Positions 1 through 10,669 of a DNA stretch of 10,672 bases are shown here, piece by piece. The position numbers and the translations under genes are program-made. Every line of letters begins with the position of its first letter. The first letter of the stretch is position 1. The notes beneath the pieces are model-generated. The model searched no databases. It worked only from the letters and a program-made list of their open reading frames with translations, and was not told the DNA's origin. Where the stretch lies: the NCBI GenBank assembly GCA_017304505.1, contig JAFKKQ010000322.1, positions 1 to 10,672 on the forward strand, given 5' to 3'. The DNA comes from Hyphomicrobiales bacterium. GTDB lineage: Bacteria; Pseudomonadota; Alphaproteobacteria; Rhizobiales; Xanthobacteraceae.

Positions 1-319
1 TGTCAGGCTCGCTGAGCATGCTGGCAAAGCCCTTCATCACGGGGTCATTGCGCTTGTCGCCCTTGAACTCCAGCAACTGCTTGACCAGGTACTCGGGATG
101 CTGGCCGGCCAGCTTGGGCTGCAGCGGGATGGTGGAATTGCCGTCGGCCGCATGGCATGCCGCGCAGACGGCGGTGTAGCTGGCCTCGCCCTTCGCCAGA
201 TCGGCCTTGGCCGCCTTCGGCTGAGCCGGGGCAGCAGGTGCCTCGCCAGCGGAGAAAGCGGGAAAGGCGGGGGCTGCAGCAAGAATGGCAGCCGTCAGCA
301 AAGAGGCAAGCAACTTCAT
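1..319 (-). CDS. Cytochrome c, c4-like, secreted (3' end outside window)
   Basis: A reading frame begins with ATG at 319 and runs off the left edge after 106 residues without a stop. Residues 1-24 form a classical signal peptide (MKLLASLLTA start, Ala-rich core, likely cleavage after AFSA). An Ala/Pro/Lys-rich linker follows. A haem-attachment motif C52-A-A-C55-H56 lies in the context CAACHAADGNSTIP, and M95 in RNDPVMKGFAS fits the usual position of the distal Met ligand. The conserved QPKLAGQHPEYLVKQL stretch is typical of cytochrome c4-type domains. It would act as a periplasmic electron carrier. The family impression is Burkholderiales, where such a gene often lies divergent to engB; here it follows an EPS polymerase on the same strand instead. 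Whether a second haem domain exists cannot be seen. Confidence 0.9.
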   Translation of the reverse strand, partial: MKLLASLLTAAILAAAPAFPAFSAGEAPAAPAQPKAAKADLAKGEASYTAVCAACHAADGNSTIPLQPKLAGQHPEYLVKQLLEFKGDKRNDPVMKGFASMLSEPD

Positions 320-362
320 ATCGAGGGCGTGGTTCTGTTGTTGAAAGCGCAAAATTCGGCGG

Positions 363-368
363 ATTCTA
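363..368 (-). promoter_or_regulatory. Possible -10 box for the cytochrome c gene
   Basis: On the minus strand TAGAAT (five of six matches to TATAAT) lies 43 bases before the cytochrome start codon. That would give a leader of roughly 35 bases. No convincing -35 hexamer is seen at the proper distance; the best is TATCAA, a poor match. No strong Shine-Dalgarno precedes the ATG. Confidence 0.3.
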
Positions 369-429
369 CAATGGGGTCCCCTGTGATTGATATCGTCAGG
401 AACCCTGGTTTCGCCCCTGCGCACAGAGG

Positions 430-491
430 AAAACATATTCCTTGATCGTGGTCACAAACTGGCCACGGATTCGGTACTGAACATATGTTTT
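430..491. repeat. Nested inverted repeats in the spacer before the cytochrome gene
   Basis: The outer arms are perfect 9-base inverted copies, AAAACATAT at 430-438 and ATATGTTTT at 483-491. Inside them lies a second inverted pair, CGTGG at 447-451 and CCACG at 463-467. The right outer arm also overlaps the palindrome ACATATGT (481-488). The function is unknown: an operator, an RNA structure or a remnant of a small element are all possible. No target-site duplication was seen around it. The remaining sequence between 320 and 595 shows no gene and no tRNA. Confidence 0.5.
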
Positions 492-592
492 TCGCAGCCC
501 AGCATATCGATCTGTGCCAGCGCGGCAATAAGGACTCTACCCATGTGGCGCGCGATACCACACCCGTGCGCGCCAGATTCCGCTTCCCCGTC

Positions 593-613
593 GCTTCAAC
601 CCGCGCCGAAGCG
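593..613. repeat. Inverted repeat at the stop codon of the truncated polymerase
   Basis: CGCTTC at 593-598 and GAAGCG at 608-613 form a perfect 6-base stem with a 9-base loop. The stop codon of the polymerase (596-598 on the minus strand) is part of one arm. No T-run follows, so it is not a typical intrinsic terminator. It marks the point where polymerase-like sequence ends. Confidence 0.45.
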
Positions 614-1387
614 GCTGTCCGCCGCGACGACGGCTGCAAGCGCGCCAAGCATGATGCCGAGGTGCAGCTTGTTGTCGAACCGTGAGCGCACCACCCCCCA
701 CATGAAAACGATAACACCGAAATTCCCCATCGACACCGGCTCAAGGAACAGCGACGACACGCGATGGTCGCCGATGAACGGCAACAGATTGCGCCCGCCC
801 TGCGCACCCGCGGGGCGGATGCCGCTCACAAACAGGTCCGAATTCTGGAAAATCTGGTGTGCCTCGATGGTTCCTCGGGCGATGTAATAGTGCGCGACGT
901 TGAACACGCGTACGAACGTCTCAAGCCAAAAGTATTCAAACGCGGCAACGACGAGAACCGTCCCAAGAACGATCGCGACGATGGTATCGACGGCCTTCAG
1001 GTTCCGGGTCCGCGTCCCAAGCATGAAAAATGCGATGGGAATCGCCAGGTCGCGGATGATCTTGACGTCGATAGTCTTGTCGGATTCGTCCAGGAACCGG
1101 ACGGAGGCAAACGACAGGGTCCACATCACCGCGAACCCGATCAACATGAGGTGGACCTGCCCCATCGAGCGGTAGGAAACCAGGAACACCAGCGAAAGGA
1201 TCAGGGCTTCGCAGCCGACGACATAGATTTCGCTGATATGCAGGACGAGCGTATTGGCGAAGCACAGCACGAGATTGAACGTGACCGCGCCGAACACAAG
1301 TGCAAACAGGACAAAAGGCGGGGCTTCGTCCCCGGCCTGAGACAGGTGCGGAGCATAACGCGCCGCTTGCACCCCGCTTGCCGCCAT
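596..1387 (-). pseudogene. EPS polymerase (Wzy/GumE-like membrane protein), C-terminally truncated
   Basis: The 263-residue product is rich in membrane segments (about 24-48, 55-73, 79-95, 110-123, 134-152, 219-233 and 243-257). It has a long hydrophilic loop at about 155-210, the layout of Wzy/O-antigen-ligase-type proteins that polymerise lipid-linked repeat units at the periplasmic face. The stretch RVSSLFLEPVSMGNFG (209-224) resembles the R-x-S-x-F-x-EP signature seen in EPS polymerases. Family members are usually over 400 residues. This frame stops right after ADSRFGAG, and the other two frames beyond 596 are not membrane-like, so a simple frameshift does not restore it. The start ATG at 1387 follows GGAG (1398-1401) and lies 7 bases past the stop of the GH5 gene, so the two form an operon. 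The gene is probably non-functional, unless a natural short form exists. Confidence 0.7.
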
Positions 1388-1394
1388 CGCTTTG

Positions 1395-2426
1395 CTACTC
1401 CGGCGCGGCCCGCCCGTTCACGTGCTTCAGCAGGACCGACATCTGCGGACGGTCCGCGCCGTTGACCGGCTGCACGCTGGTGAAATAGGTCGGCGGCCAG
1501 AAGCCCGCCGCCCAGTAGGTCCAGCCAAGCCACACGTCACCGTTTTTTTCCATGTCGGCCAGCATGGCGTCGAGCGCTGCCATACATACCGGATCGGATC
1601 CCCCGCCGAACTCGCCAAGGAATCCGCGCTTGCGATGGTCGCGCAGCCATTGGGTAAAGCGCTGCAGCGTCGTCACTCCGATCTGCTCGTTCTGGCATTG
1701 CGGGTGCGTTCCCGAGTAATTGCTGTCGAGGTACTGATGCGCCTCGAAGGCGTAATTGTTCGCCGGATCGACAACGCCCAACATCGCCTCCGCGTTCGGG
1801 GTGCCGTAGCTTTTGCCGAACCAACTGTGCGCGCCGGTCCAGCCGTTGCCGGGAACGAGGATCAGGTTCTTGGCTCCGGTCTGTCGGATCGAGGCGATCG
1901 CGGCATTGGCCGCGGCGAGCCACGTTTCGGTCGGCAAGCCCTTGGGCTCGTTCATCAGGCCGAAGATGACTTGCTTATTGTCCTTGAAACGCCCCGCGAG
2001 CCGGCGCCACAGGTCGGCCAATGCTTCGGTCGGCACGCTGGCGCTGCCGATCGGCTGGCGCAGATAAGCGGCATAGTTGTGCACGTCGAGAATCACATTC
2101 ATGCCTCGCGACGTAGCCTGGGATACCACCGTCGCCAAGCGATCAAGCTCGGCGGTGTTCAGATCGGCTCCAAGGGCGGGCTGCATCCGTTCCCAAAGGA
2201 AAGGAATGCGAACCGTGTTCATGCCCTTCGCTGAAAAGTGATCGATCGTCGCGGACGTTGGATAGAAGTAATCGGTTCCGGCTTTCCCCGGTAACTTCTT
2301 ACTGGCGAACTCAGCACCCGCGATATTCACGCCTGTAAAGCGGAGCGGTGTCTGTGCGCGCAACATCGATACCGTCGCGGCAAGCATCGCCGCCACAACA
2401 ACGGCTCGCGTCACAACTGACTTCAT
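1395..2426 (-). CDS. Secreted glycoside hydrolase family 5 (endoglucanase-like)
   Basis: The product has 343 residues, with a signal peptide at 1-24 (cleavage likely after MLRA) and then a single GH5 barrel. Catalytic landmarks are present: NTVRIPF (70-76), H116 in LDVHNY, the acid/base E160 in GLMNEP, H230/Y232 in EAHQY, the nucleophile E272 in GFLGEFG, and a WTYW stretch near 302-305. GH5 enzymes of this type hydrolyse beta-1,4-glucans with retention of configuration. It would act in the periplasm or outside the cell, perhaps cutting the cellulose-like backbone of the EPS or clearing stalled polymer; that role is inference. There is no carbohydrate-binding module. An in-frame stop at the upstream Shine-Dalgarno-like stretch leaves ATG 2426 as the only usable start. 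AAGGAA (2439-2444) may serve as its ribosome binding site. It is first in a unit with the polymerase. Confidence 0.9.
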   Translation of the reverse strand: MKSVVTRAVVVAAMLAATVSMLRAQTPLRFTGVNIAGAEFASKKLPGKAGTDYFYPTSATIDHFSAKGMNTVRIPFLWERMQPALGADLNTAELDRLATVVSQATSRGMNVILDVHNYAAYLRQPIGSASVPTEALADLWRRLAGRFKDNKQVIFGLMNEPKGLPTETWLAAANAAIASIRQTGAKNLILVPGNGWTGAHSWFGKSYGTPNAEAMLGVVDPANNYAFEAHQYLDSNYSGTHPQCQNEQIGVTTLQRFTQWLRDHRKRGFLGEFGGGSDPVCMAALDAMLADMEKNGDVWLGWTYWAAGFWPPTYFTSVQPVNGADRPQMSVLLKHVNGRAAPE

Positions 2427-2754: not shown

Positions 2755-2842
2755 ACAATTGTGCAATCGCGAAACGAAACGAGTGGTCGTGCGTTGGCCA
2801 ACTCGGGTTTTCCTTCAAGGCAAGGATCGGGTTCGGAGGACA

Positions 2843-4711
2843 ATGCAAATCACTCATGTCGTGCGGCAGTTCCATCCGGCGGTGGGCGGAATGGAAAATG
2901 TCGTCTGGGAACTCGCAAGCGCGCAAGTGGCCAACGGTCACAACGTTCGTGTGGTAACACTCAACCGTCTCTTCAAATCGCCGGACAGCAAACGTCTTCC
3001 ATCCCGCGAGACGTTGGCGGGAATCGATGTCGTTCGGATTCCGTTTTTCGGTTCCACCCGCTACCCGCTGGCATGGAGCGTCCTGAAATTCATCAGGGGC
3101 GCCGACATCGTTCACGTCCACGGCGTCGACTTCTTCTTCGATTACTTGGCGTGGACGTGGCCGCTGCATCGGCGGCGCCTGGTGGTTTCGACCCACGGCG
3201 GGTATTTCCATACCCCGTTCGCCTCGTCGTTCAAGAAATTCTACTTCGCCACGATGACGCGGCTTCTGCTCAGCCGCTATGCCGGTGTCGCATCGGTCAG
3301 CACCGCCGATCAGCGGCTCTTCAAGACCATCCGCAACCGCGGCGTCGCTCTGATTGAAAACGGCGTCAGCATCGCGCGATTCGCCGAGACCTCGTCGCAT
3401 ACGCCAAGCAAAACCATTGTGTCGCTTGGCCGGTTTTCCCGAAACAAGCGGCTGGATCGCCTCATCGACTTCGTCGCGGCGCTGTCACGGCGCGACCCGG
3501 GCTGGACGTTAAAGATCCTTGGCCGGCCGTCGGACCTGACGGTCGCCGACCTGCAGAAGCTTGCGACCTCCGCCGGGGTTCGCGACGCGGTCGAGATCGT
3601 GCCCCTGCCCTCCGAGCGCCACATCTGCGAAATCTTCGGCCAGTGCTCGGTGATCGCCAGTGCGTCGAGCTATGAAGGATTCGGCCTGACCGCCGTCGAG
3701 GGAATGTCGGCCGGCCTGTTCCCGGTGCTCAACGAGATTCCACCATTCCGCCATCTCGTCGAACGCCACAGGATCGGCATGATCGTGGATTTTTCCGACC
3801 CCGAGGCCGCAGCGAGCCGGTTTTTCGCCCGCTGGCGCGACATCGCAATGGACTATGAGAGCCATCGGCGGCGCGCAATCGACGCAAGCGCACGTTACGA
3901 TTGGGCCGGGGTGAGCCGGCAATACGAGTCGTTCTACAATTCGGTGATCGGCCGCAAGGTCCGGTCGATCCTTGACGTTGGCGTCGGAGTCAGCACCTTC
4001 AACGACGCCGCGAAGCTGCTGGATAAGCGCTTCGAGGAAGGCAAACCGGCTGCGGTGGTGTTCGCCAGCGCCCACACCCTCAACACCACCTTCGACAATC
4101 ACGAGGTGCGAACGGCGCTGCGCAAGTCGATTGTCTTCAACGATGGCGTCGGGGTCGACATCGCAAGTCGTCTGCTGTTCGGAAAATGGTTTCCGGAGAA
4201 CTTGAACGGCACCGACTTTGTCCCCGATTACCTCCGCCACACGCGGCACCGTTACCGCATCTTCTTCCTCGGCGCGCGGCCGGGCATTGCGGAGCGCGCC
4301 GCCGCACGTCTGCTGAAGGCCGCTCCGCGCCATGAGCTTGCGGGCTGCACCCACGGCTATCTGGGCGAGCGCGACACCGTCACCATCACAAGCAGAATCC
4401 GCGAATCCCGGGCCGATCTGCTGCTCGTCGCGATGGGCAATCCGGGCCAGGAGCTTTGGCTCATGAACCACCTTGCGGAAACCGGATGCCACTTCGGTTT
4501 CGCCGTGGGCGGCTTGTTCGATTTCATGGCCGGCGCCGTCCCGCGCGCACCGCAATGGGTTCGCACGTTGCGGATGGAATGGTTCTACCGCGTGGTCCAG
4601 GAGCCGCGACGGCTGTGGGCCCGCTATTTCATCGGCATGCCGCTGTTTTTGCTACGGGTCGGCCGCCAATGGCTCTCCGGTCCACGCGTCCCGAACACGG
4701 TATCCGAATGA
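2843..4711 (+). CDS. gumH-gumM: Fusion glycosyltransferase: GumH-like GT4 + GumM-like GT26 (WecG/TagA/CpsF)
   Basis: The product has 622 residues in two domains. Residues 1-365 are a GT-B fold GT4 enzyme very like xanthan GumH (GDP-mannose alpha-1,3-mannosyltransferase): MQITHVVRQFHPAVGGME at the N-terminus, VVSTHGGYFHT (114-124), GRFSRNKRLD (196-205) and the EX7E pair E278/E286 in YEGFGLTAVEGMSAG. Residues about 372-615 are a GT26 domain as in GumM: NDGVGV (433-438, with the proposed catalytic Asp D434), NGTDF (455-459), MGNPGQE (531-537), GLFDFMAG (557-564) and RAPQWVRTLRMEW (568-580). GumM adds the second backbone glucose and GumH the following mannose, so one protein may carry two successive steps at the inner face of the membrane. 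The start at 2843 is preferred because GumH homology begins there and GGAGG lies at 2835-2839; the frame is open upstream to 2717 but without resemblance to anything. It overlaps the flippase gene by 4 bases (ATGA). Confidence 0.92.
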   Translation: MQITHVVRQFHPAVGGMENVVWELASAQVANGHNVRVVTLNRLFKSPDSKRLPSRETLAGIDVVRIPFFGSTRYPLAWSVLKFIRGADIVHVHGVDFFFDYLAWTWPLHRRRLVVSTHGGYFHTPFASSFKKFYFATMTRLLLSRYAGVASVSTADQRLFKTIRNRGVALIENGVSIARFAETSSHTPSKTIVSLGRFSRNKRLDRLIDFVAALSRRDPGWTLKILGRPSDLTVADLQKLATSAGVRDAVEIVPLPSERHICEIFGQCSVIASASSYEGFGLTAVEGMSAGLFPVLNEIPPFRHLVERHRIGMIVDFSDPEAAASRFFARWRDIAMDYESHRRRAIDASARYDWAGVSRQYESFYNSVIGRKVRSILDVGVGVSTFNDAAKLLDKRFEEGKPAAVVFASAHTLNTTFDNHEVRTALRKSIVFNDGVGVDIASRLLFGKWFPENLNGTDFVPDYLRHTRHRYRIFFLGARPGIAERAAARLLKAAPRHELAGCTHGYLGERDTVTITSRIRESRADLLLVAMGNPGQELWLMNHLAETGCHFGFAVGGLFDFMAGAVPRAPQWVRTLRMEWFYRVVQEPRRLWARYFIGMPLFLLRVGRQWLSGPRVPNTVSE

Positions 4712-6090
4712 CGATCGACGCGCCTGCCAAGACTGCCGGCGGCTTCCTGCCCGAAAGCACGCCCGCCGCCGGCCGCGGCGCGCGTGCGTTCAGCGCGGCG
4801 CGCGGCATCGCCCAGCGGTGGAAGGGCCGTATTTTTCTGGCTCTGACCGATCAGGGTCTGGGCAGCGCCGGAAATTTTCTGCTGACCATCCTCTGCGTCA
4901 TCTGGCTGCCGCTCGACGGCTTCGGCCGTTATGTCCTCGTCATGTCCGTCTCGCTTCTGATCGAGGTGGGACAAGCCTCGCTGATCCTCGATTCGATGCC
5001 GGCGGTCGTCGCGCGCTACGGCCAGCGCAATCGGCGGCGGCTGGAGATCGCCTGTCTCTGGGTCGTTCTGATCTACAGCGCACTCACCAGCGCCGTCGTT
5101 CTTTTGAGCGCTGGGGTGTTTTCGCTTTGGGCGCCGGAATTCGCGCTTCCCCTGCTCTGTCTCGCGATTTCCAATCCGTTCCAGCGGCTGTACGTGTTCC
5201 TTCGGCGCCTGTGCTACATCCGCGACCGTCAGCAAGCCGCCGCCATCGCCTCCGTCGCCAATTGCACGTGCCTGCTGGGCGGCGTCGTGGGACTGCATTA
5301 CTCCGGCCTGCTTTCGGTTGCGGCGCTCCTTCTGCTTTGGGGCTTCGCCAATGGCGTTGCCGCGCTCGTCATCTGCTGCGCCGGCGTCATGTACCCCGGC
5401 CGCACCAAGACGACTCACGTGGCATGGCTGGCGCGGCAGCTTTGGCGCTCGGGCCGCTGGCTGGTCGGCGCAGCGGTCGGTTTCTGGGCCTGCAACTGGG
5501 GAATCCTGCCCCTGGTCGCTGCCACCGCCGGCATCGAAGCCGCCGGCATCGTGCGGGCGCTGCAGACCCTGGTGACGCCGATCATCCAGCTCAACGCGGC
5601 ACTCAACCTCGCCATCCTGCCGCGCATCGCCGACAAGGTGGTGGCCGTCGGCCAGAAATATGCGCGGTCATTCGCGATCTACAGCACCGCGGTGTTCACG
5701 GCGATGGTCGTGGTCTATGCCGCCGTCGTGCTGGGCGAATCCAAGACCATCCTCGCCCTGCTCTACCGCAAGCAGGAGATCGCCGCGTCGTCCTACCTAC
5801 TCTGGCCGCTGGGCATCGCCATGATCGCCGAAGCGGCGCCGCAAGGCTCGTCGATCGCCCTGCTGGCGATGAACCGCACCCGCGTCTTCTTCTTCTCCCG
5901 CGCGCTCGGCGTGGCGATCCTGCTGGGCGGCGCCGCTGTGCTCGGCCCGACAAAGGGCGCCGAGGGCATCCTGTGGGCCAACGCCGTCTCGCACGCCGTC
6001 GGCGCCGCCTTGCTGATGGCCGCCGCATTCCGCATTCGCGAAGAACCGCAGAGCGTCGCGCGGCGGCGCCCTGCCATCGTGATTCGATAG
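4708..6090 (+). CDS. Wzx-type EPS repeat-unit flippase (MOP superfamily, GumJ-like role)
   Basis: The 460-residue polytopic membrane protein has a charged N-terminal tail (1-45) followed by about a dozen hydrophobic segments. The first begins near TDQGLGSAGNFLLTILCVIWL, with FGRYVLVMSV next, the pattern of polysaccharide flippases of the MATE/MOP type. It would move the undecaprenyl-linked repeat unit across the inner membrane. The start ATG at 4708 overlaps the stop of the fusion glycosyltransferase (ATGA), a sign of translational coupling. Earlier in-frame ATGs lie inside that gene and are not supported. The methyltransferase starts 14 bases after its stop. Flippases of this superfamily share little sequence, so the EPS assignment rests on topology and neighbours. 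Its substrate, a Glc-Glc-Man-GlcA-like unit, is inferred from the transferases nearby. Confidence 0.85.
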   Translation: MTIDAPAKTAGGFLPESTPAAGRGARAFSAARGIAQRWKGRIFLALTDQGLGSAGNFLLTILCVIWLPLDGFGRYVLVMSVSLLIEVGQASLILDSMPAVVARYGQRNRRRLEIACLWVVLIYSALTSAVVLLSAGVFSLWAPEFALPLLCLAISNPFQRLYVFLRRLCYIRDRQQAAAIASVANCTCLLGGVVGLHYSGLLSVAALLLLWGFANGVAALVICCAGVMYPGRTKTTHVAWLARQLWRSGRWLVGAAVGFWACNWGILPLVAATAGIEAAGIVRALQTLVTPIIQLNAALNLAILPRIADKVVAVGQKYARSFAIYSTAVFTAMVVVYAAVVLGESKTILALLYRKQEIAASSYLLWPLGIAMIAEAAPQGSSIALLAMNRTRVFFFSRALGVAILLGGAAVLGPTKGAEGILWANAVSHAVGAALLMAAAFRIREEPQSVARRRPAIVIR

Positions 6091-6104
6091 CCATAGGGGT
6101 TGCC

Positions 6105-6776
6105 ATGCTGAATATGAAATACCGATTGAAACGCCTCACCCGCAGCGCGCTCGTTCCGCTGATCTACCGCTATCCGCCGTCCGTGCTCGCGCCCGAGCGG
6201 CTTTATCTGTTTCTGCACCACCTCATCCAGGCCAAGGACGTGCCCGGAGCGGTGGTCGAGATCGGATGCAATCTCGGCGGCACCGCGATCATGGCCAGGC
6301 GGATGCTCGACCGGCTCGGTGTGAAGAAGCCCTACATCTGCATCGACACCTTCGACGGATTTGTCGACAGCCAGTTCGCGGCGGACGTGTCCCGCGGCTC
6401 GCCGTCGCGGGACCAGAATTTATTTTCCGGCAATTCCAGGGATCTTGTCGCCAAAATCCTGCGCCGGCACGGCTGCGGCGACATCCAACTGATCCAGGGC
6501 GATGTCACCGTCGTGCCCGACGCCGCTCTCCCAGCTCAATGCTCGGTCGTGCTGCTCGATGTCGATCTGACCGAACCGACTTACGTGTCCCTGCAACGCT
6601 TCTGGCCGCGGCTTGCGCCGGGCGGCGTCATCCTGGTCGACGACTGCCAGGAAAACGCCAGTTGGAAGGCGCAGATCGGTTACAGCCGGTTCTGTCGCGA
6701 GAACCACCTGCCGGAGCGGTACCTGCATGGCATGGGGCTTCTGGCGCGCGCCGAGCGCAAAGCCGAGGCGGCCTGA
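6105..6776 (+). CDS. TylF/NovP-like SAM-dependent sugar O-methyltransferase
   Basis: The 223-residue class I methyltransferase carries a SAM-binding motif VVEIGCNLGGTA (50-61), an acidic strand ICIDTFDGF (78-86), and the family hallmark LDVDLTEPTY (151-160) with APGGVILVDDC (171-181). The Asp set D152, D179 and D180 corresponds to the divalent-metal site of TylF/NovP/MycE sugar methyltransferases. The product is probably an O-methylated hexose or uronic acid in the EPS; a methylated terminal glucuronate is one inference. The start ATG at 6105 follows AGGGG (6095-6099). The same frame is open through the flippase gene, but that part shows no protein resemblance. It contains a rare TTA codon (6420-6422) just after a GC-rich hairpin. 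Its stop lies 20 bases from the stop of the convergent gumK. Confidence 0.87.
   Translation: MLNMKYRLKRLTRSALVPLIYRYPPSVLAPERLYLFLHHLIQAKDVPGAVVEIGCNLGGTAIMARRMLDRLGVKKPYICIDTFDGFVDSQFAADVSRGSPSRDQNLFSGNSRDLVAKILRRHGCGDIQLIQGDVTVVPDAALPAQCSVVLLDVDLTEPTYVSLQRFWPRLAPGGVILVDDCQENASWKAQIGYSRFCRENHLPERYLHGMGLLARAERKAEAA
6389..6426 (+). terminator. Intragenic hairpin with T-rich tail, terminator-like
   Basis: GTCCCGCG (6389-6396) and CGCGGGAC (6406-6413) form a perfect 8-base GC-rich stem with a 9-base loop. Soon after comes AATTTATTTT (6417-6426), unusual in this GC-rich gene. The shape resembles an intrinsic terminator, but the T-tract is interrupted and starts a few bases late, and it lies inside the methyltransferase reading frame. 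Confidence 0.3.
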
Positions 6777-6796: not shown

Positions 6797-7942
6797 TCAC
6801 ATTGCGGTGTCGGCAAAGGCGCGCGGCTCCAGCATGCGGTGCGCGACATCCTCCCAGGTGAGGAATTGCGGCGGCTGGATTGCGCGGCGGTTCGCCAGCG
6901 CGGACTCGATCGCCGCCGCGATTGAGCCTGCGTCGCCGGGCACATAGCCGAAACGGTTCGGGCTGTCGCCCACGGCAAAGGTCGGGCACACGGCGGGCAC
7001 GCCGCAGTATTCGTACTGCTGCAGCTTGATGCTGGTGTCGCTCAGATATTCGCAGCCCGGCGCCGCGCGGTACGGTGCCAACCCGATCGTGGCATGAATG
7101 ATGAACGGCATGGTGTCGCGGAACGCCATCTCGGGATACTGGGTCACGTTGCCCGGTGCATCGAAAGTCCGGCCGGCTCCGATGACATGGAACATAACGT
7201 CGGGAAACTGCGCCGCTGCATCAGCGAAGAATCCAGCATCGAACAGCATGGAACCGGCCGACACCGCATGGATTCCCGACCGATAGGGGTTGTCGCAAGA
7301 CTTCGGAAAATCGTCGTCGCGGATGCCATGCGGAACAAAGAACAACCGATCCTCGATCCAGCGAAACCCGTCTGCCATCTTGCGCGACGTCACACACGCC
7401 TGATCGATAACCCGCCCCGCTTTCTCGAGCCGGGTCTGCACGTAGGGGTGCACGCCCACGGTCATGAGATCGTCGGACGCGAGGTAAATGATTTTCGCCG
7501 TTTCGTTGAGCGCCCGCGCCCGGTTGAGCAGCACCGCGCCGAGGCCGGATTCGACCATGATGAACGATGCCGACCGCAATTCGTCGTCGATGAACCGCGA
7601 CCGCATGCGCCCATAAGCCCTGTAGAGCGGCGGCGATAGGCTATCGAGCCATGCGACCTTGGATTTGAACGGGTGGAACGGCGTCTTCCACAAGTAGCAT
7701 TGGATGTTGTTTTTCACCTCCGGCTTGTTGGCGCGGCGCCAAAGGAAATTGCGGGAATCGCCCTTGATCCGCGACAGCACGCTGAAGCGAACCGAGATGA
7801 ACGACACCTTATGCCCCAGGCGGGCAAAGGCATCGGCGATCTGGTGAACGCTGGCGCGCCGCGCGGTGCGGTAATCATGATCGGAGATCACCACAACCTT
7901 GCCGCGCCGGTTCGCGGAGCCCGAATTCCCATCCACTCGCAT
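6797..7942 (-). CDS. gumK: GumK-like beta-glucuronosyltransferase (GT70)
   Basis: The 381-residue protein aligns by eye along its whole length with xanthan GumK (400 residues). Shared stretches are SDHDYRTARRASVH (20-33), SVLSRIKGD (54-62), YLWKTPFHPF (83-92), VESGLGAV (130-137), the catalytic-Asp region ASDDLMTVG (155-163, D157), GIHAVSAGSMLFDAGFF (223-239), FHVIGAG, Y291, K306/Q309 in SIKLQQY, AVCPTFAVGDSPNRFGY, and LEPRAF near the end. GumK transfers glucuronate from UDP-GlcA in beta-1,2 linkage to the mannose of the lipid-linked trisaccharide at the inner membrane. The start ATG at 7942 has GGAGG at 7948-7952 and lies 1 base past the stop of the preceding small gene, so it is the last gene of the exoP unit. 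The mannose acceptor would be supplied by the fusion transferase on the opposite strand. Confidence 0.93.
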   Translation of the reverse strand: MRVDGNSGSANRRGKVVVISDHDYRTARRASVHQIADAFARLGHKVSFISVRFSVLSRIKGDSRNFLWRRANKPEVKNNIQCYLWKTPFHPFKSKVAWLDSLSPPLYRAYGRMRSRFIDDELRSASFIMVESGLGAVLLNRARALNETAKIIYLASDDLMTVGVHPYVQTRLEKAGRVIDQACVTSRKMADGFRWIEDRLFFVPHGIRDDDFPKSCDNPYRSGIHAVSAGSMLFDAGFFADAAAQFPDVMFHVIGAGRTFDAPGNVTQYPEMAFRDTMPFIIHATIGLAPYRAAPGCEYLSDTSIKLQQYEYCGVPAVCPTFAVGDSPNRFGYVPGDAGSIAAAIESALANRRAIQPPQFLTWEDVAHRMLEPRAFADTAM

Positions 7943-7943
7943 G

Positions 7944-8351
7944 TCAACCTCCGCCTTTGATTCGTATGCAAGGCGTCGGATTGATGGCGGTCATCAGCAC
8001 CGCCTGCGACATGCGGGCGGCCAGCGCACGATCCTTGCGCTTGATGAAGTGCAGCGTGCCGCGCGGAAACCGCTCGCAGAACTGCGCAAGCGTCGAAGCG
8101 GTGGCCGCCACGGTGTCGCGCTTCGGGATCACCGCGATGGCGCCAACCTTCAGGATAAAAGCGTCCTGCACGTTTGAAAGCTGCAGCGTATCCATGCAGT
8201 CGCGGAACAGCTTCTGGTAAATGCTGGGTCGTTGCGGCAGGTCCGACGCCTCGGTCAAAAGGTAGTCCCGGCTTTTCGAGCAGCTTTCCGCATGCGCCAA
8301 GCCCGGCGCAACGAAAAGCAGCGCCGCCACACACACCATGACGAACTTCAC
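7944..8351 (-). CDS. Small secreted four-cysteine protein of unknown function
   Basis: The 135-residue product has a signal peptide at 1-21 (MKFVMVCVAALLFV core, cleavage after AHA) and then a mature domain of about 114 residues with four cysteines, C24, C52, C92 and C128, enough for two disulfides. The mature part looks mainly helical, without transmembrane segments. I do not recognise a defined family. The pattern of a helix, FPRGTLHFI, another helix and a final PC is loosely like Rap1a/Tai-type periplasmic proteins, too weak to assign. The start GTG at 8351 overlaps the exoP stop (GTGA); an ATG at 8339 is an alternative that would also keep a signal peptide. It ends 1 base before gumK. This tight packing between the co-polymerase and a side-chain transferase suggests a periplasmic accessory role in EPS assembly. 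Confidence 0.85.
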   Translation of the reverse strand: MKFVMVCVAALLFVAPGLAHAESCSKSRDYLLTEASDLPQRPSIYQKLFRDCMDTLQLSNVQDAFILKVGAIAVIPKRDTVAATASTLAQFCERFPRGTLHFIKRKDRALAARMSQAVLMTAINPTPCIRIKGGG

Positions 8352-10669
8352 TCCGCGGCCTCCCGCGCCGGCGGCCGGCCATAAAGATAAGGTGAGCCAT
8401 AGGCACTGCCGTCATAAGGCTCATAGAACCGCTGCCGGTCGAGATCGACACGAGTCAGCACGGTGCCCAGAACCCGGTCATGAACCCGGCCAAGCAGTTC
8501 GGTCGCGCGAAGCACCACATCTTGCGGGGTCTGGTCCCAACCGATGGTGAGGACCACGCAATCCGCCAGCTCCGCCAACACACGCCCATCGACCAGCGGC
8601 AACAGCGGCGGCGAGTCGACGATGATCACATCGAAATGGTTGCGCAGCTCGCCAAGAACGCTGTTCATCCCTTCCGACGAAACGAACTCGGCCAGCAGCG
8701 AGACGTCCGCAGGCGGCGGCGACGGCAGGATGGCCAGATTGCTCGACGGCTCGATCAGCATGGCCTGATGCAACGGTGCATCCGCCAGCGCGACATCGAG
8801 CAAACCCATCCGCATGCGCGGACACAAAGAGCGCGTTAGCTCGGGATTGCGCAGGTCGCCGTCGACCAGCGCCGTCTTGATGCCAAGCGACGCCATCGAC
8901 AGCGCGAGGTTCGCCGAGAGCGTCGTCTTGCCCTCGCCGCCGACGGCCGATGTCACCATGATGACCTGCGTCAATTTCACCCGCGCCGCTTGCTGCAATG
9001 CGAACCGCACCGAGCGCACCGATTCGGCAAATGCCGATGTCGGCTGCTCAATCGCATAACGCAACAGCGGAGGCTGCAATGCCGGCGGCAACAACCGGGC
9101 CGTTCTCGGATCGTAGCTTTCGAGTGCAACACGGCCGCGTTTGGCCAGATGGGCCAATTCCCGCACGCCGACGGACGGCATCGCCGCGATGCCGGGCAGC
9201 CCCGACGCCGCGCGGGCCTGATTCTGTGTCTTCACGCGCCGGTCGAGATAATCGACGGCCAACGCCGACAGACAGCCGAAACCAAGACCGAGAATCAGAG
9301 CCAGGCCCAACGTCAACGGAACCTTCGGGAACGATGGCGAAACCGGCGCGATGGCCTTGGTCACCACCCGCGAATCCGGCATTTCCAAGCTTTCCTGCGC
9401 GGCGGTTTCCTTGTAGCGCGCCAGGAAGCTCTCGTAGAGCGTGCGGTTGGCTTCGGCCTGCCGCTGCAACTCGCGCAATCGCACTTGCGTCTCGCCGGAC
9501 GCCGACGAGACATTTTGAAGTTCATCCAGGCTTTTCTGCAGCGATGCCTCGCGGGCCGACGCCACTTCATAGGAATGACGCCGCGCCTGCAGGATGCGCT
9601 TGAGTTCGGCGCTGACGAGGTTCTTGGTTTCGCGTATCTGCGCACGCACCGTCTCAAGCATCGGGTGGCGCGGCCCGAACTTGGTGGCGAGGTCCGCCTC
9701 GGTCTTGGCCAAGTCCGCATATTGCGTGCGCAGACGTGCAATCGTGTCGGAGCCCAGCGCTTCCGTGATCGACCCCGGATCGCCCCCGTTCTTGGCAATA
9801 TGATCGACTTGATCGTATTTGGCGCGCGCCTCGGCGGTTTCGGCTCGGGCTTCGATCAGCTTGTTGTTGAGGTCGCTGATCTGCTGATCGTTGACGGTGA
9901 CGCCTTGCGACACGATCAGGTTGTGGGCGGCACGGAAATCCTGAACCGCCTTGTCGGACGCCAGCACCCGGGCTTTCAACTCTTCGATTTGACCATTGAG
10001 CCAATCCGCCGCGGTCTTGGCGGCATCGGCTTTCGAGTGCACCTGCTCGACGAAATAGGCCTGCGCGAAGGCGTTGGCGATGCGCGCGGCCTTCACCCGG
10101 TCCTTCGAGCTGGCATCGATATCGACCAGGAAGGTCGAGCGTTGCCGGGTGATCTTGACCCGCCGCTCAAGGCTTTCGCTGGCTCGGGCGCGCAACACAT
10201 CCCCGACGCTGCTGCCATCGGCCGGCTTACGTGCAAACAGCGATTTGACGAAACCGACGAAGCCCGGCGGCGGGACGAACTCCGGATCTTCGGTGAGCTT
10301 CAGCTCATTGACGACCCTCTGGCGCACGGCAGCCGACTGGATCAGCGACACCTGGCTTTCGATCGAGGTATCGTCGGTTCCGTAATTGCTCGGCGCCTGA
10401 TTCCCGGTATCGAGCACGCTGGCCCGGCGCGGATCTATCAGCACCGTCGTGGTCGCCGTGTAAAGCGGCGTAACCAGCGCGACGAAGATCATCGCCAGAA
10501 CGAGAAAGAGCGCCGCCACCGCCAGGATCACCCGCGCATGCCGGCGCAGGATACGGACGATTTCCCGCAGGTCGATCATCTGTCCGTGACCCGCCGGCGC
10601 CGCAAAGCCCGCGTCGTCCGATACAGTTCGCGACAAGGCACGCATACCGTCAGAACCGTGCTGTGACAT
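8348..10669 (-). CDS. exoP: ExoP/Wzc-type polysaccharide co-polymerase with tyrosine autokinase
   Basis: The 773-residue inner-membrane protein controls chain length and couples polymerisation to export. Its parts are: cytoplasmic tail, Wzz domain from about IDLREIVRILRRH (32-44), TM1 at 47-67, a large periplasmic part with coiled coils (about 215-430), the Pro-rich motif APVSPSFPKVPLTL (441-454), TM2 at about 452-472, then the BY-kinase. The kinase shows EX2RX2R (E549, R552, R555), Walker A SAVGGEGKTT (574-583), Walker A' LVDGDLRNP (601-609) and Walker B VIIVDSPP (681-688). The tail carries five tyrosines (Y749, Y752, Y757, Y761, Y763) for autophosphorylation. GumC of Xanthomonas lacks the kinase part; the fused form is usual in rhizobia. 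The ATG at 10669 is only 3 bases from the window edge, so an upstream start cannot be excluded. Its stop overlaps the next gene. Confidence 0.93.
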   Translation of the reverse strand: MSQHGSDGMRALSRTVSDDAGFAAPAGHGQMIDLREIVRILRRHARVILAVAALFLVLAMIFVALVTPLYTATTTVLIDPRRASVLDTGNQAPSNYGTDDTSIESQVSLIQSAAVRQRVVNELKLTEDPEFVPPPGFVGFVKSLFARKPADGSSVGDVLRARASESLERRVKITRQRSTFLVDIDASSKDRVKAARIANAFAQAYFVEQVHSKADAAKTAADWLNGQIEELKARVLASDKAVQDFRAAHNLIVSQGVTVNDQQISDLNNKLIEARAETAEARAKYDQVDHIAKNGGDPGSITEALGSDTIARLRTQYADLAKTEADLATKFGPRHPMLETVRAQIRETKNLVSAELKRILQARRHSYEVASAREASLQKSLDELQNVSSASGETQVRLRELQRQAEANRTLYESFLARYKETAAQESLEMPDSRVVTKAIAPVSPSFPKVPLTLGLALILGLGFGCLSALAVDYLDRRVKTQNQARAASGLPGIAAMPSVGVRELAHLAKRGRVALESYDPRTARLLPPALQPPLLRYAIEQPTSAFAESVRSVRFALQQAARVKLTQVIMVTSAVGGEGKTTLSANLALSMASLGIKTALVDGDLRNPELTRSLCPRMRMGLLDVALADAPLHQAMLIEPSSNLAILPSPPPADVSLLAEFVSSEGMNSVLGELRNHFDVIIVDSPPLLPLVDGRVLAELADCVVLTIGWDQTPQDVVLRATELLGRVHDRVLGTVLTRVDLDRQRFYEPYDGSAYGSPYLYGRPPAREAAE

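What the first reader, a model, noticed from the sequence alone, without database searches (positions are those of the whole stretch)
2843..4711. GumH-like and GumM-like transferases fused in one polypeptide
The sequence shows a full GT4 domain with an intact EX7E pair followed, after a very short linker (about residues 365-372), by a full GT26 domain with NDGVGV and the C-terminal RTLRMEWFYR region. In xanthan the two enzymes are separate and act in succession: GumM adds glucose, then GumH adds mannose. The domain order is reversed relative to the reaction order. A fusion would fix 1:1 stoichiometry and could channel the lipid-linked intermediate. The GT26 C-terminus would place both sites at the membrane.
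Basis: partly seen in the sequence, partly recalled or inferred. Interest (0 to 1): 0.7.

Follow-up and report, generated by a model that had tools for sequence, protein, structure and literature searches.

The report
Two xanthan-type sugar transferases fused
One bacterial gene encodes, as a single protein, two enzymes that xanthan makers keep separate and that add neighbouring sugars to a growing slime polymer; the fusion is real, recurs across several proteobacterial groups, and suggests that these two steps work side by side.

Summary
Window 2843-4711 (+) encodes 622 aa without a stop: a GumH-type GT4 (residues 1-370) joined through about three residues to a GumM-type GT26 (373-622). The halves are 43% and 39% identical to GumH and GumM of a Xanthomonas gum locus. 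It is no assembly error: the 120 best of 781 homologues listed carry both domains (one is the window's own), and 35 of the 80 kept named loci encode the fusion, isolates among them, in alpha-, beta- and gammaproteobacteria. Catalytic residues of both halves are kept in 53 of 53 fused rows. In 7 of 8 near-complete genomes the fused GT26 is the only GT26 found. One clade for the fused rows is rejected (p-AU 5e-6). The neighbourhood is gum-like: GumK, part of a GumE-like polymerase, GumC-like Wzc, GH5. Best reading: a bifunctional enzyme adding Glc (GT26), then Man (GT4), to lipid-linked glucose. Sugars, activity and channelling are inferred. Databases name the protein by its domains; eight open-access searches brought up no paper that I saw describe the fusion. 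New variant of a known kind.

The parts
2843..4711 (+). Fused GT4-GT26 gene (GumH-like then GumM-like), 622 aa plus stop
2835..2839 (+). GGAGG, probable ribosome-binding site, 3 nt before the ATG at 2843
   Evidence: read from sequence
2843..3952 (+). GT4 half (residues 1-370), GumH-type retaining mannosyltransferase by homology
3674..3700 (+). EX7E motif, E278 to E286; both Glu in 53 of 53 fused rows
3953..3958 (+). Linker core (residues 371-372) between GT4 helix 354-369 and GT26 strand 373-376
3959..4708 (+). GT26 half (residues 373-622), GumM-type inverting glucosyltransferase by homology
4139..4147 (+). NDG, residues 433-435; D434 aligns with Asp65 of TagA, its proposed catalytic base
   Evidence: alignment; paper passages
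4589..4624 (+). C-terminal appendage arginines R583, R590, R594, aligning with TagA Arg214, Arg221, Arg224
   Evidence: alignment
4708..6090 (+). Polytopic membrane protein, 460 aa, start overlaps the fusion stop (ATGA); probable flippase (Wzx/GumJ role) by topology and position only, no family match
6087..6776 (+). TylF-like methyltransferase
6797..7942 (-). GumK-like glucuronosyltransferase (GT70), the next step after GumH in xanthan
8348..10669 (-). Wzc/GumC-like chain-length and tyrosine autokinase protein
1395..2426 (-). GH5 cellulase-family hydrolase
596..1387 (-). GumE-like polymerase (Wzy), N-terminal part only

Best explanation
It is a bifunctional, membrane-associated glycosyltransferase of a xanthan/acetan-type Wzx/Wzy exopolysaccharide pathway. 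A sugar-phosphate transferase first makes Glc-PP-undecaprenol. The C-terminal GT26 half (GumM step) adds the second glucose, with D434 as base and the C-terminal arginines holding the UDP. The N-terminal GT4 half (GumH step) then adds alpha-1,3-mannose from GDP-Man, using E278 and K202. GumK next adds GlcA, and flippase and GumE-like polymerase finish the job. The short junction keeps both sites on one membrane patch at 1:1, so the disaccharide-lipid can pass over without being lost. Shown here: fusion, homology, intact residues in both halves, cluster context, recurrence. Inferred: sugars, linkages, activity, hand-over.
For: Domains and full-length homology. GT4: R8, E18, H118, H123, R197, K202, E278, E286 in 53 of 53 fused rows, matching GumH R8, E18, H118, H123, R198, K203, E279, E287 named in PMC13104830 (passages; mapping; counts). 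GT26: D434, Q536, R583, R590, R594 in 53 of 53; fold match to TagA TMt 0.92, rmsd 1.9 over 197 columns. GumK in the same cluster keeps 7 of the 8 residues that I took from PMC12768416 (passages, alignment). The fused GT26 is the only one above cut-off in the window's genome, which is 79% complete, and the only one found in 7 of 8 chosen near-complete genomes. The fused state recurs.
Against: No enzyme assay exists for this protein in anything that I saw. GumK lies within the fetched DNA of only 8 of 35 fused named loci; none was hit in the fetched DNA of the Pseudolabrys-type loci L084-L087 and L089, so the polymer beyond the core differs between hosts. GumH Tyr181 and Tyr231 are F180 and S230 here. 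Two sugar-phosphate transferases are in the genome and the cognate one is not settled. All listed NCBIfam equivalog models are far below cut-off for either half. The fusion is patchy: none of 10 same-genus genomes has a match at E 1e-30, though some are incomplete.
Confidence: 0.78

Rival explanations
1. Both halves are active but on other sugars: a GT26 that adds a different second sugar to Glc-PP-lipid and a GT4 that adds a non-mannose or differently linked sugar, so the polymer is not xanthan-like.
For: GT26 specificity varies inside Alphaproteobacteria: PrmH of Sphingomonas LM7 does not replace HfsJ of Caulobacter (PMC11340318, passages). Only 8 of 35 fused loci have GumK within the fetched DNA.
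Against: 43% and 39% identity to Xanthomonas GumH (371 aligned columns) and GumM (234), with the NLNGTD block shared; GumK, which acts on the mannosyl-cellobiosyl lipid (PMC12768416, passages), sits in the same cluster.
Confidence: 0.15
2. Only one half is catalytic and the other serves as membrane anchor or scaffold.
For: TagA C-terminal helices do tether the protein to the membrane (PMC6493773, passages).
Against: Catalytic residues of both halves are kept in 53 of 53 fused rows and at 98% or more in 169 rows; in 7 of 8 chosen near-complete genomes no other GT26 was found.
Confidence: 0.05
3. The fusion is an assembly or frame artefact.
For: The window is a contig of a fragmented genome (550 contigs, 79% complete), and its left 0.6 kb does look odd.
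Against: Fused proteins on many independent contigs, including isolates such as Pseudolabrys sp. Root1462, Bradyrhizobium jicamae PAC68 and Desertibaculum subflavum.
Confidence: 0.01

Closest known systems
GumH (GT4) of Xanthomonas, and AceA of acetan synthesis
   Same: 159 of 371 aligned columns identical to the Xanthomonas arboricola gum-locus protein; same EX7E, Arg-Lys pair and His118
   Different: Ends in a GT26 domain; F180 and S230 in place of two Tyr of GumH
GumM (GT26) of Xanthomonas
   Same: 92 of 234 aligned columns identical; NDG, NLNGTD, EW..R and RY blocks
   Different: Not a separate protein: a GT4 domain precedes it
TagA (GT26), structures 7n41 and 7mpk
   Same: Same fold, TMt 0.92; Asp65 and Arg214/221/224 have counterparts
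   Different: Thr37, proposed to position the ManNAc, aligns with F407 here and is Phe in the Xanthomonas GumM; TagA acts on GlcNAc-PP-lipid
Split adjacent GT4/GT26 pairs (Hyphomicrobium L126-L128, G013)
   Same: Same two families, GT4 first; open frames 15-18 nt apart in L126-L128, matches 28 nt apart in G013
   Different: Separate genes; a more distant lineage

Membership tests
GT4, GumH/AceA type | GT-B fold, GT4 Pfam models over cut-off | tested here: met
GT4, GumH/AceA type | EX7E plus Arg-Lys pair and His118 (residues as named in PMC13104830) | tested here: met
   E278, E286, R197, K202, H118 in 53 of 53 fused rows
GT4, GumH/AceA type | Closer to GumH than to other GT4 enzymes | tested here: inconclusive
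   43% to GumH; other NCBIfam GT4 models match below cut-off, but no GumH model is among those listed
GT4, GumH/AceA type | Transfers Man from GDP-Man to O3 of cellobiosyl-PP-lipid | not testable with these tools
   needs assay
GT26 (WecB/TagA/CpsF), GumM type | PF03808 and TIGR00696 over cut-off | tested here: met
   182 bits against 27.4 and 109.3 against 69
GT26 (WecB/TagA/CpsF), GumM type | Catalytic Asp and C-terminal appendage arginines | tested here: met
   D434, R583, R590, R594 in 53 of 53
GT26 (WecB/TagA/CpsF), GumM type | Adds beta-1,4-Glc to Glc-PP-lipid | not testable with these tools
   needs assay
Xanthan-type gum cluster | GumK, GumE, GumC, GumB and GumD counterparts in one cluster | tested here: inconclusive
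Xanthan-type gum cluster | GumI (GT94), GumF/G, GumL | not tested
   none among the nine window proteins given to Pfam (one of them out of frame and redone); the genome was not searched for them

The most novel reading that the evidence does not exclude
The fusion is a true two-step membrane machine: the GT26 product is handed directly to the GT4 site without leaving the protein. Because fused forms do not make one clade, and one fused lineage groups with split adjacent pairs, GumM and GumH may also dock on each other where they are separate, as in Xanthomonas and acetan makers, which would make the early xanthan pathway an assembly and not a diffusion relay.
Probability: 0.3. Interest if true: 0.6.

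Novelty: new variant of a known kind. Interest (0 to 1): 0.4.

Why it matters
Whether the xanthan transferases act as a complex is open. The GumH/GumI preprint raises a multiprotein assembly of GumH, GumK and GumI as an alternative, and states that no experimental evidence currently supports it and that co-folding attempts gave no plausible complex (PMC13104830, passage); GumM is not part of that passage. A naturally fused GumH-GumM pair whose fused state recurs is genetic evidence that these two steps gain from being together. It gives one protein on which hand-over of a lipid-linked intermediate can be measured, and a compact part for making xanthan-type cores in laboratory hosts.

Tried and rejected
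Assembly artefact: rejected by homologues in isolates. One inactive half: rejected on residues and on the absence of a second GT26. One clade of all fused rows: rejected on the GT4 tree (p-AU 5.3e-6 for 28 fused of 48 rows; 0.003 for 27 without Reyranella). The GT26 tree needs 8 changes and was not AU-tested. New joinings and later splits cannot be told apart from these counts, so how many times the genes were joined is not settled. A scan of genome contigs with the single protein kept nothing; the alignment found the loci. NCBIfam and PDB searches gave the membrane protein after the fusion no name. The preprint's failed co-folding of separate Gum transferases speaks against a docking model for those enzymes.

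Errors of mine: the membrane protein after the fusion was first taken out of frame (4803-6090). The rows for protein 4, and the Wzx columns, are therefore void; redo it in frame.

Rows dropped or chosen: one search used 169 proteins of 570 aa or more, leaving out P0002 (identical to the query) and all shorter ones. One search merged identical halves: 51 fused frames gave 40 rows, plus the window and 12 chosen database proteins. One search aligned 58 chosen proteins. One search used 48 of 125 rows. One search tested 8 genomes that I chose. Searches kept the best 80 loci of 567 relatives and listed the best 120 of 781, so counts among them are not population frequencies. The genome samples overlap.

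Labels: TagA Asp65 and Arg214/221/224 are from PMC6493773 passages; I read their match off the alignment. GumK D157 is recalled and was not counted. That the C-terminal helix of GT-B enzymes crosses back is recalled. Papers: PMC11340318, abstract and passages; PMC13104830, PMC12768416, PMC5050591, PMC6493773, PMC4862043, PMC4443731, PMC8042644, passages only; all others, search listings only. The statement that no paper describes the fusion rests (open-access library; listings, with passages of some hits). sought TagA. The single hit held no such phrase in its main text; the hits with 'bifunctional' that I opened use it for other enzymes.

Full report
What is there. The frame 2843-4711 on the plus strand encodes 622 residues with no stop. 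Pfam finds both GT4 parts and a complete WecG/TagA/CpsF (GT26) domain, all far above cut-off. The start is supported by GGAGG just upstream and by alignment with the GumH N-terminus. The AlphaFold model (58 sequences) has mean pLDDT 86.5 and pTM 0.80; the GT4 part ends in a helix at 369 and the GT26 part begins with a strand at 373; residues 122-127 and 618-622 are below 50. Foldseek puts the model on GT4 enzymes such as MshA, BshA and PimA, and on TagA with TMt 0.92 and rmsd 1.9 A. A pTM of 0.80 hints that the two parts have a defined placement, but I had no coordinates or error map to test it.

What the halves are. In the Xanthomonas arboricola gum locus (L154) the GT4 protein and the GT26 protein are identical to the two halves at 159 of 371 and 92 of 234 aligned columns. 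Residues that a GumH modelling preprint names for donor and acceptor (PMC13104830, passages) map one to one: R8, E18, H118, H123, N173, R197, K202, E278, E286 are kept; Y181 and Y231 of GumH are F180 and S230 here. In the GT26 half, D434 matches TagA Asp65, proposed as the base, and R583, R590, R594 match the appendage arginines that TagA is modelled to bring into its site at the membrane (alignment, paper passages). TagA Thr37, placed near ManNAc, aligns with F407 here, which is also Phe in the Xanthomonas GumM.

Are both halves working? In 169 fused proteins H118, R197, K202, E278, E286, D434, Q536, R583, R590 and R594 are conserved at 98% or more, R8 at 90-98%. In 53 diverse fused rows R8, E18, H118, H123, R197, K202, E278, E286, D434, Q536, R583, R590 and R594 are kept in 53 of 53; N173 is P in one, the Reyranella row. 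The window's genome has one GT26 above cut-off, this one, though it is only 79% complete. Of eight near-complete genomes with the fusion that I chose, seven show no other GT26; G1037 has a second.

How common. The 120 best of 781 homologues, the window's own included, carry both domains. Full-length fusions: 2 of 61 near relatives, 12 of 391 family genomes, one of them (G658) with a stop in the matched stretch, 3 of 397 order genomes, 2 of 385 class genomes; each count includes the window's own genome, and the samples overlap. None of the 10 same-genus genomes has a match at E 1e-30. G1122 covers the query but with one stop, and both halves came out as separate frames, so I count it as split. 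Among the 80 best named loci, 35 are fused: Pseudolabrys, Bradyrhizobium, Hyphomicrobium, Chthonobacter, Rhizobium, Shinella, Sphingomonas, Sphingobium, Desertibaculum and Reyranella, but also Ideonella (Betaproteobacteria), Ferrimonas (Gammaproteobacteria), Paraferrimonas and Alteromonas. So it is widespread and patchy, not a curiosity of one genome.

History. On a FastTree of 125 GT4 rows the fused state needs 5 changes, at least 3 forced by starred branches; on an IQ-TREE of 48 rows 6, at least 5 forced; the GT26 tree of 106 rows needs 8. Holding all 28 fused rows of the 48 as one clade is rejected (p-AU 5.3e-6), also without Reyranella (p 0.003). The Reyranella fusion (L118) groups, in both trees, with split pairs: Hyphomicrobium L126-L128, where the GT4 and GT26 frames lie 15-18 nt apart in the same order, and G013, matches 28 nt apart. 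Other loci have the pair in the opposite order, GT26 first (L117, L120, L131). So the two genes are repeatedly neighbours and were joined more than once, or joined and split again; the counts cannot tell which.

Surroundings. The fusion stop overlaps the start of a 460-aa polytopic protein (ATGA at 4708-4711; 8 hydrophobic segments by a simple scan), whose relatives at 46-49% follow the fusion in five loci, L084-L087 and L089; no family matches it, so flippase is inferred from topology and place. A TylF-like methyltransferase follows. On the minus strand lie a GumK-like protein that keeps S230, M231, L232, Y292, Y300, L301 and K307 with T for S304 (residues from PMC12768416 passages), a Wzc/GumC-like protein, a GH5 hydrolase and part of a GumE-like polymerase. 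On contig C278 a sugar-phosphate transferase, an export protein and a porin lie together; in Pseudolabrys the porin and export genes adjoin Wzc, so C278 probably continues the window's right end. A second, longer sugar-phosphate transferase, 35% identical to GumD over 426 residues, is on C550. Within the fetched DNA, GumK is found in 8 of 35 fused loci and 17 of 45 others, GH5 in 22 of 35 and 31 of 45, a GumE-like polymerase in 16 of 35 and 25 of 45, Wzc in 20 of 35 and 32 of 45 (some loci are short). The polymer core may be shared while the later sugars are not.

Mechanism. Established for xanthan: GumD loads glucose, GumM adds the second glucose in beta-1,4, GumH then adds mannose in alpha-1,3, GumK glucuronate (PMC4443731 passages; PMC5050591 passages; PMC13104830 figure legend). 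By homology the fusion does the GumM and GumH steps. The C-terminal helix of a GT-B enzyme usually crosses back to the N-lobe, the lobe that meets the lipid acceptor (general knowledge, recalled); a GT26 attached right after it would sit beside the GT4's membrane face, and the GT26's own appendage docks on the membrane. This makes hand-over of the disaccharide lipid plausible; it is not shown. Against an assembly of the separate enzymes stands the preprint's failed co-folding of Gum transferases, which did not deal with GumM in that passage.

Novelty. Databases already label the protein by one or the other domain (alpha-1,3-mannosyltransferase, or WecB/TagA/CpsF family). Eight searches of the open-access library brought up no paper that, in the listings and passages I saw, describes a GumH-GumM or GT4-GT26 fusion of this kind; subscription papers were not covered. 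I rate it a new variant of a known kind, of moderate interest.

Noticed in passing
window 1-600 and 596-1387: The GumE-like polymerase stops at about residue 305 of its Pseudolabrys relative; a stretch matching residues 324-452 is at the very end of another contig of the same genome, C273. The cytochrome c frame at 2-436 may be a contig mis-join, or a real rearrangement.
   Followed up: partly
window 6087-6776: TylF-like methyltransferase next to a GumK gene; in the 80 fetched named loci a relative was hit only in the Reyranella locus L118.
   Followed up: no
L087 13206-16185: In Pseudolabrys, a weakly GT4-like protein sits beside Wzc where the window has GumK, with a pyruvyl transferase and an FkbM methyltransferase: the later side-chain steps appear to be swapped around a constant fusion.
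   Followed up: partly
L126-L128, L117, L120, L131: Split GT4 and GT26 genes lie next to each other in both orders, open frames of L120 and L131 overlapping by a few bases.
   Followed up: partly
window 1395-2426: A GH5 cellulase-family gene accompanies the cluster in 22 of 35 fused and 31 of 45 other named loci, fitting a cellulose-like backbone.
   Followed up: partly
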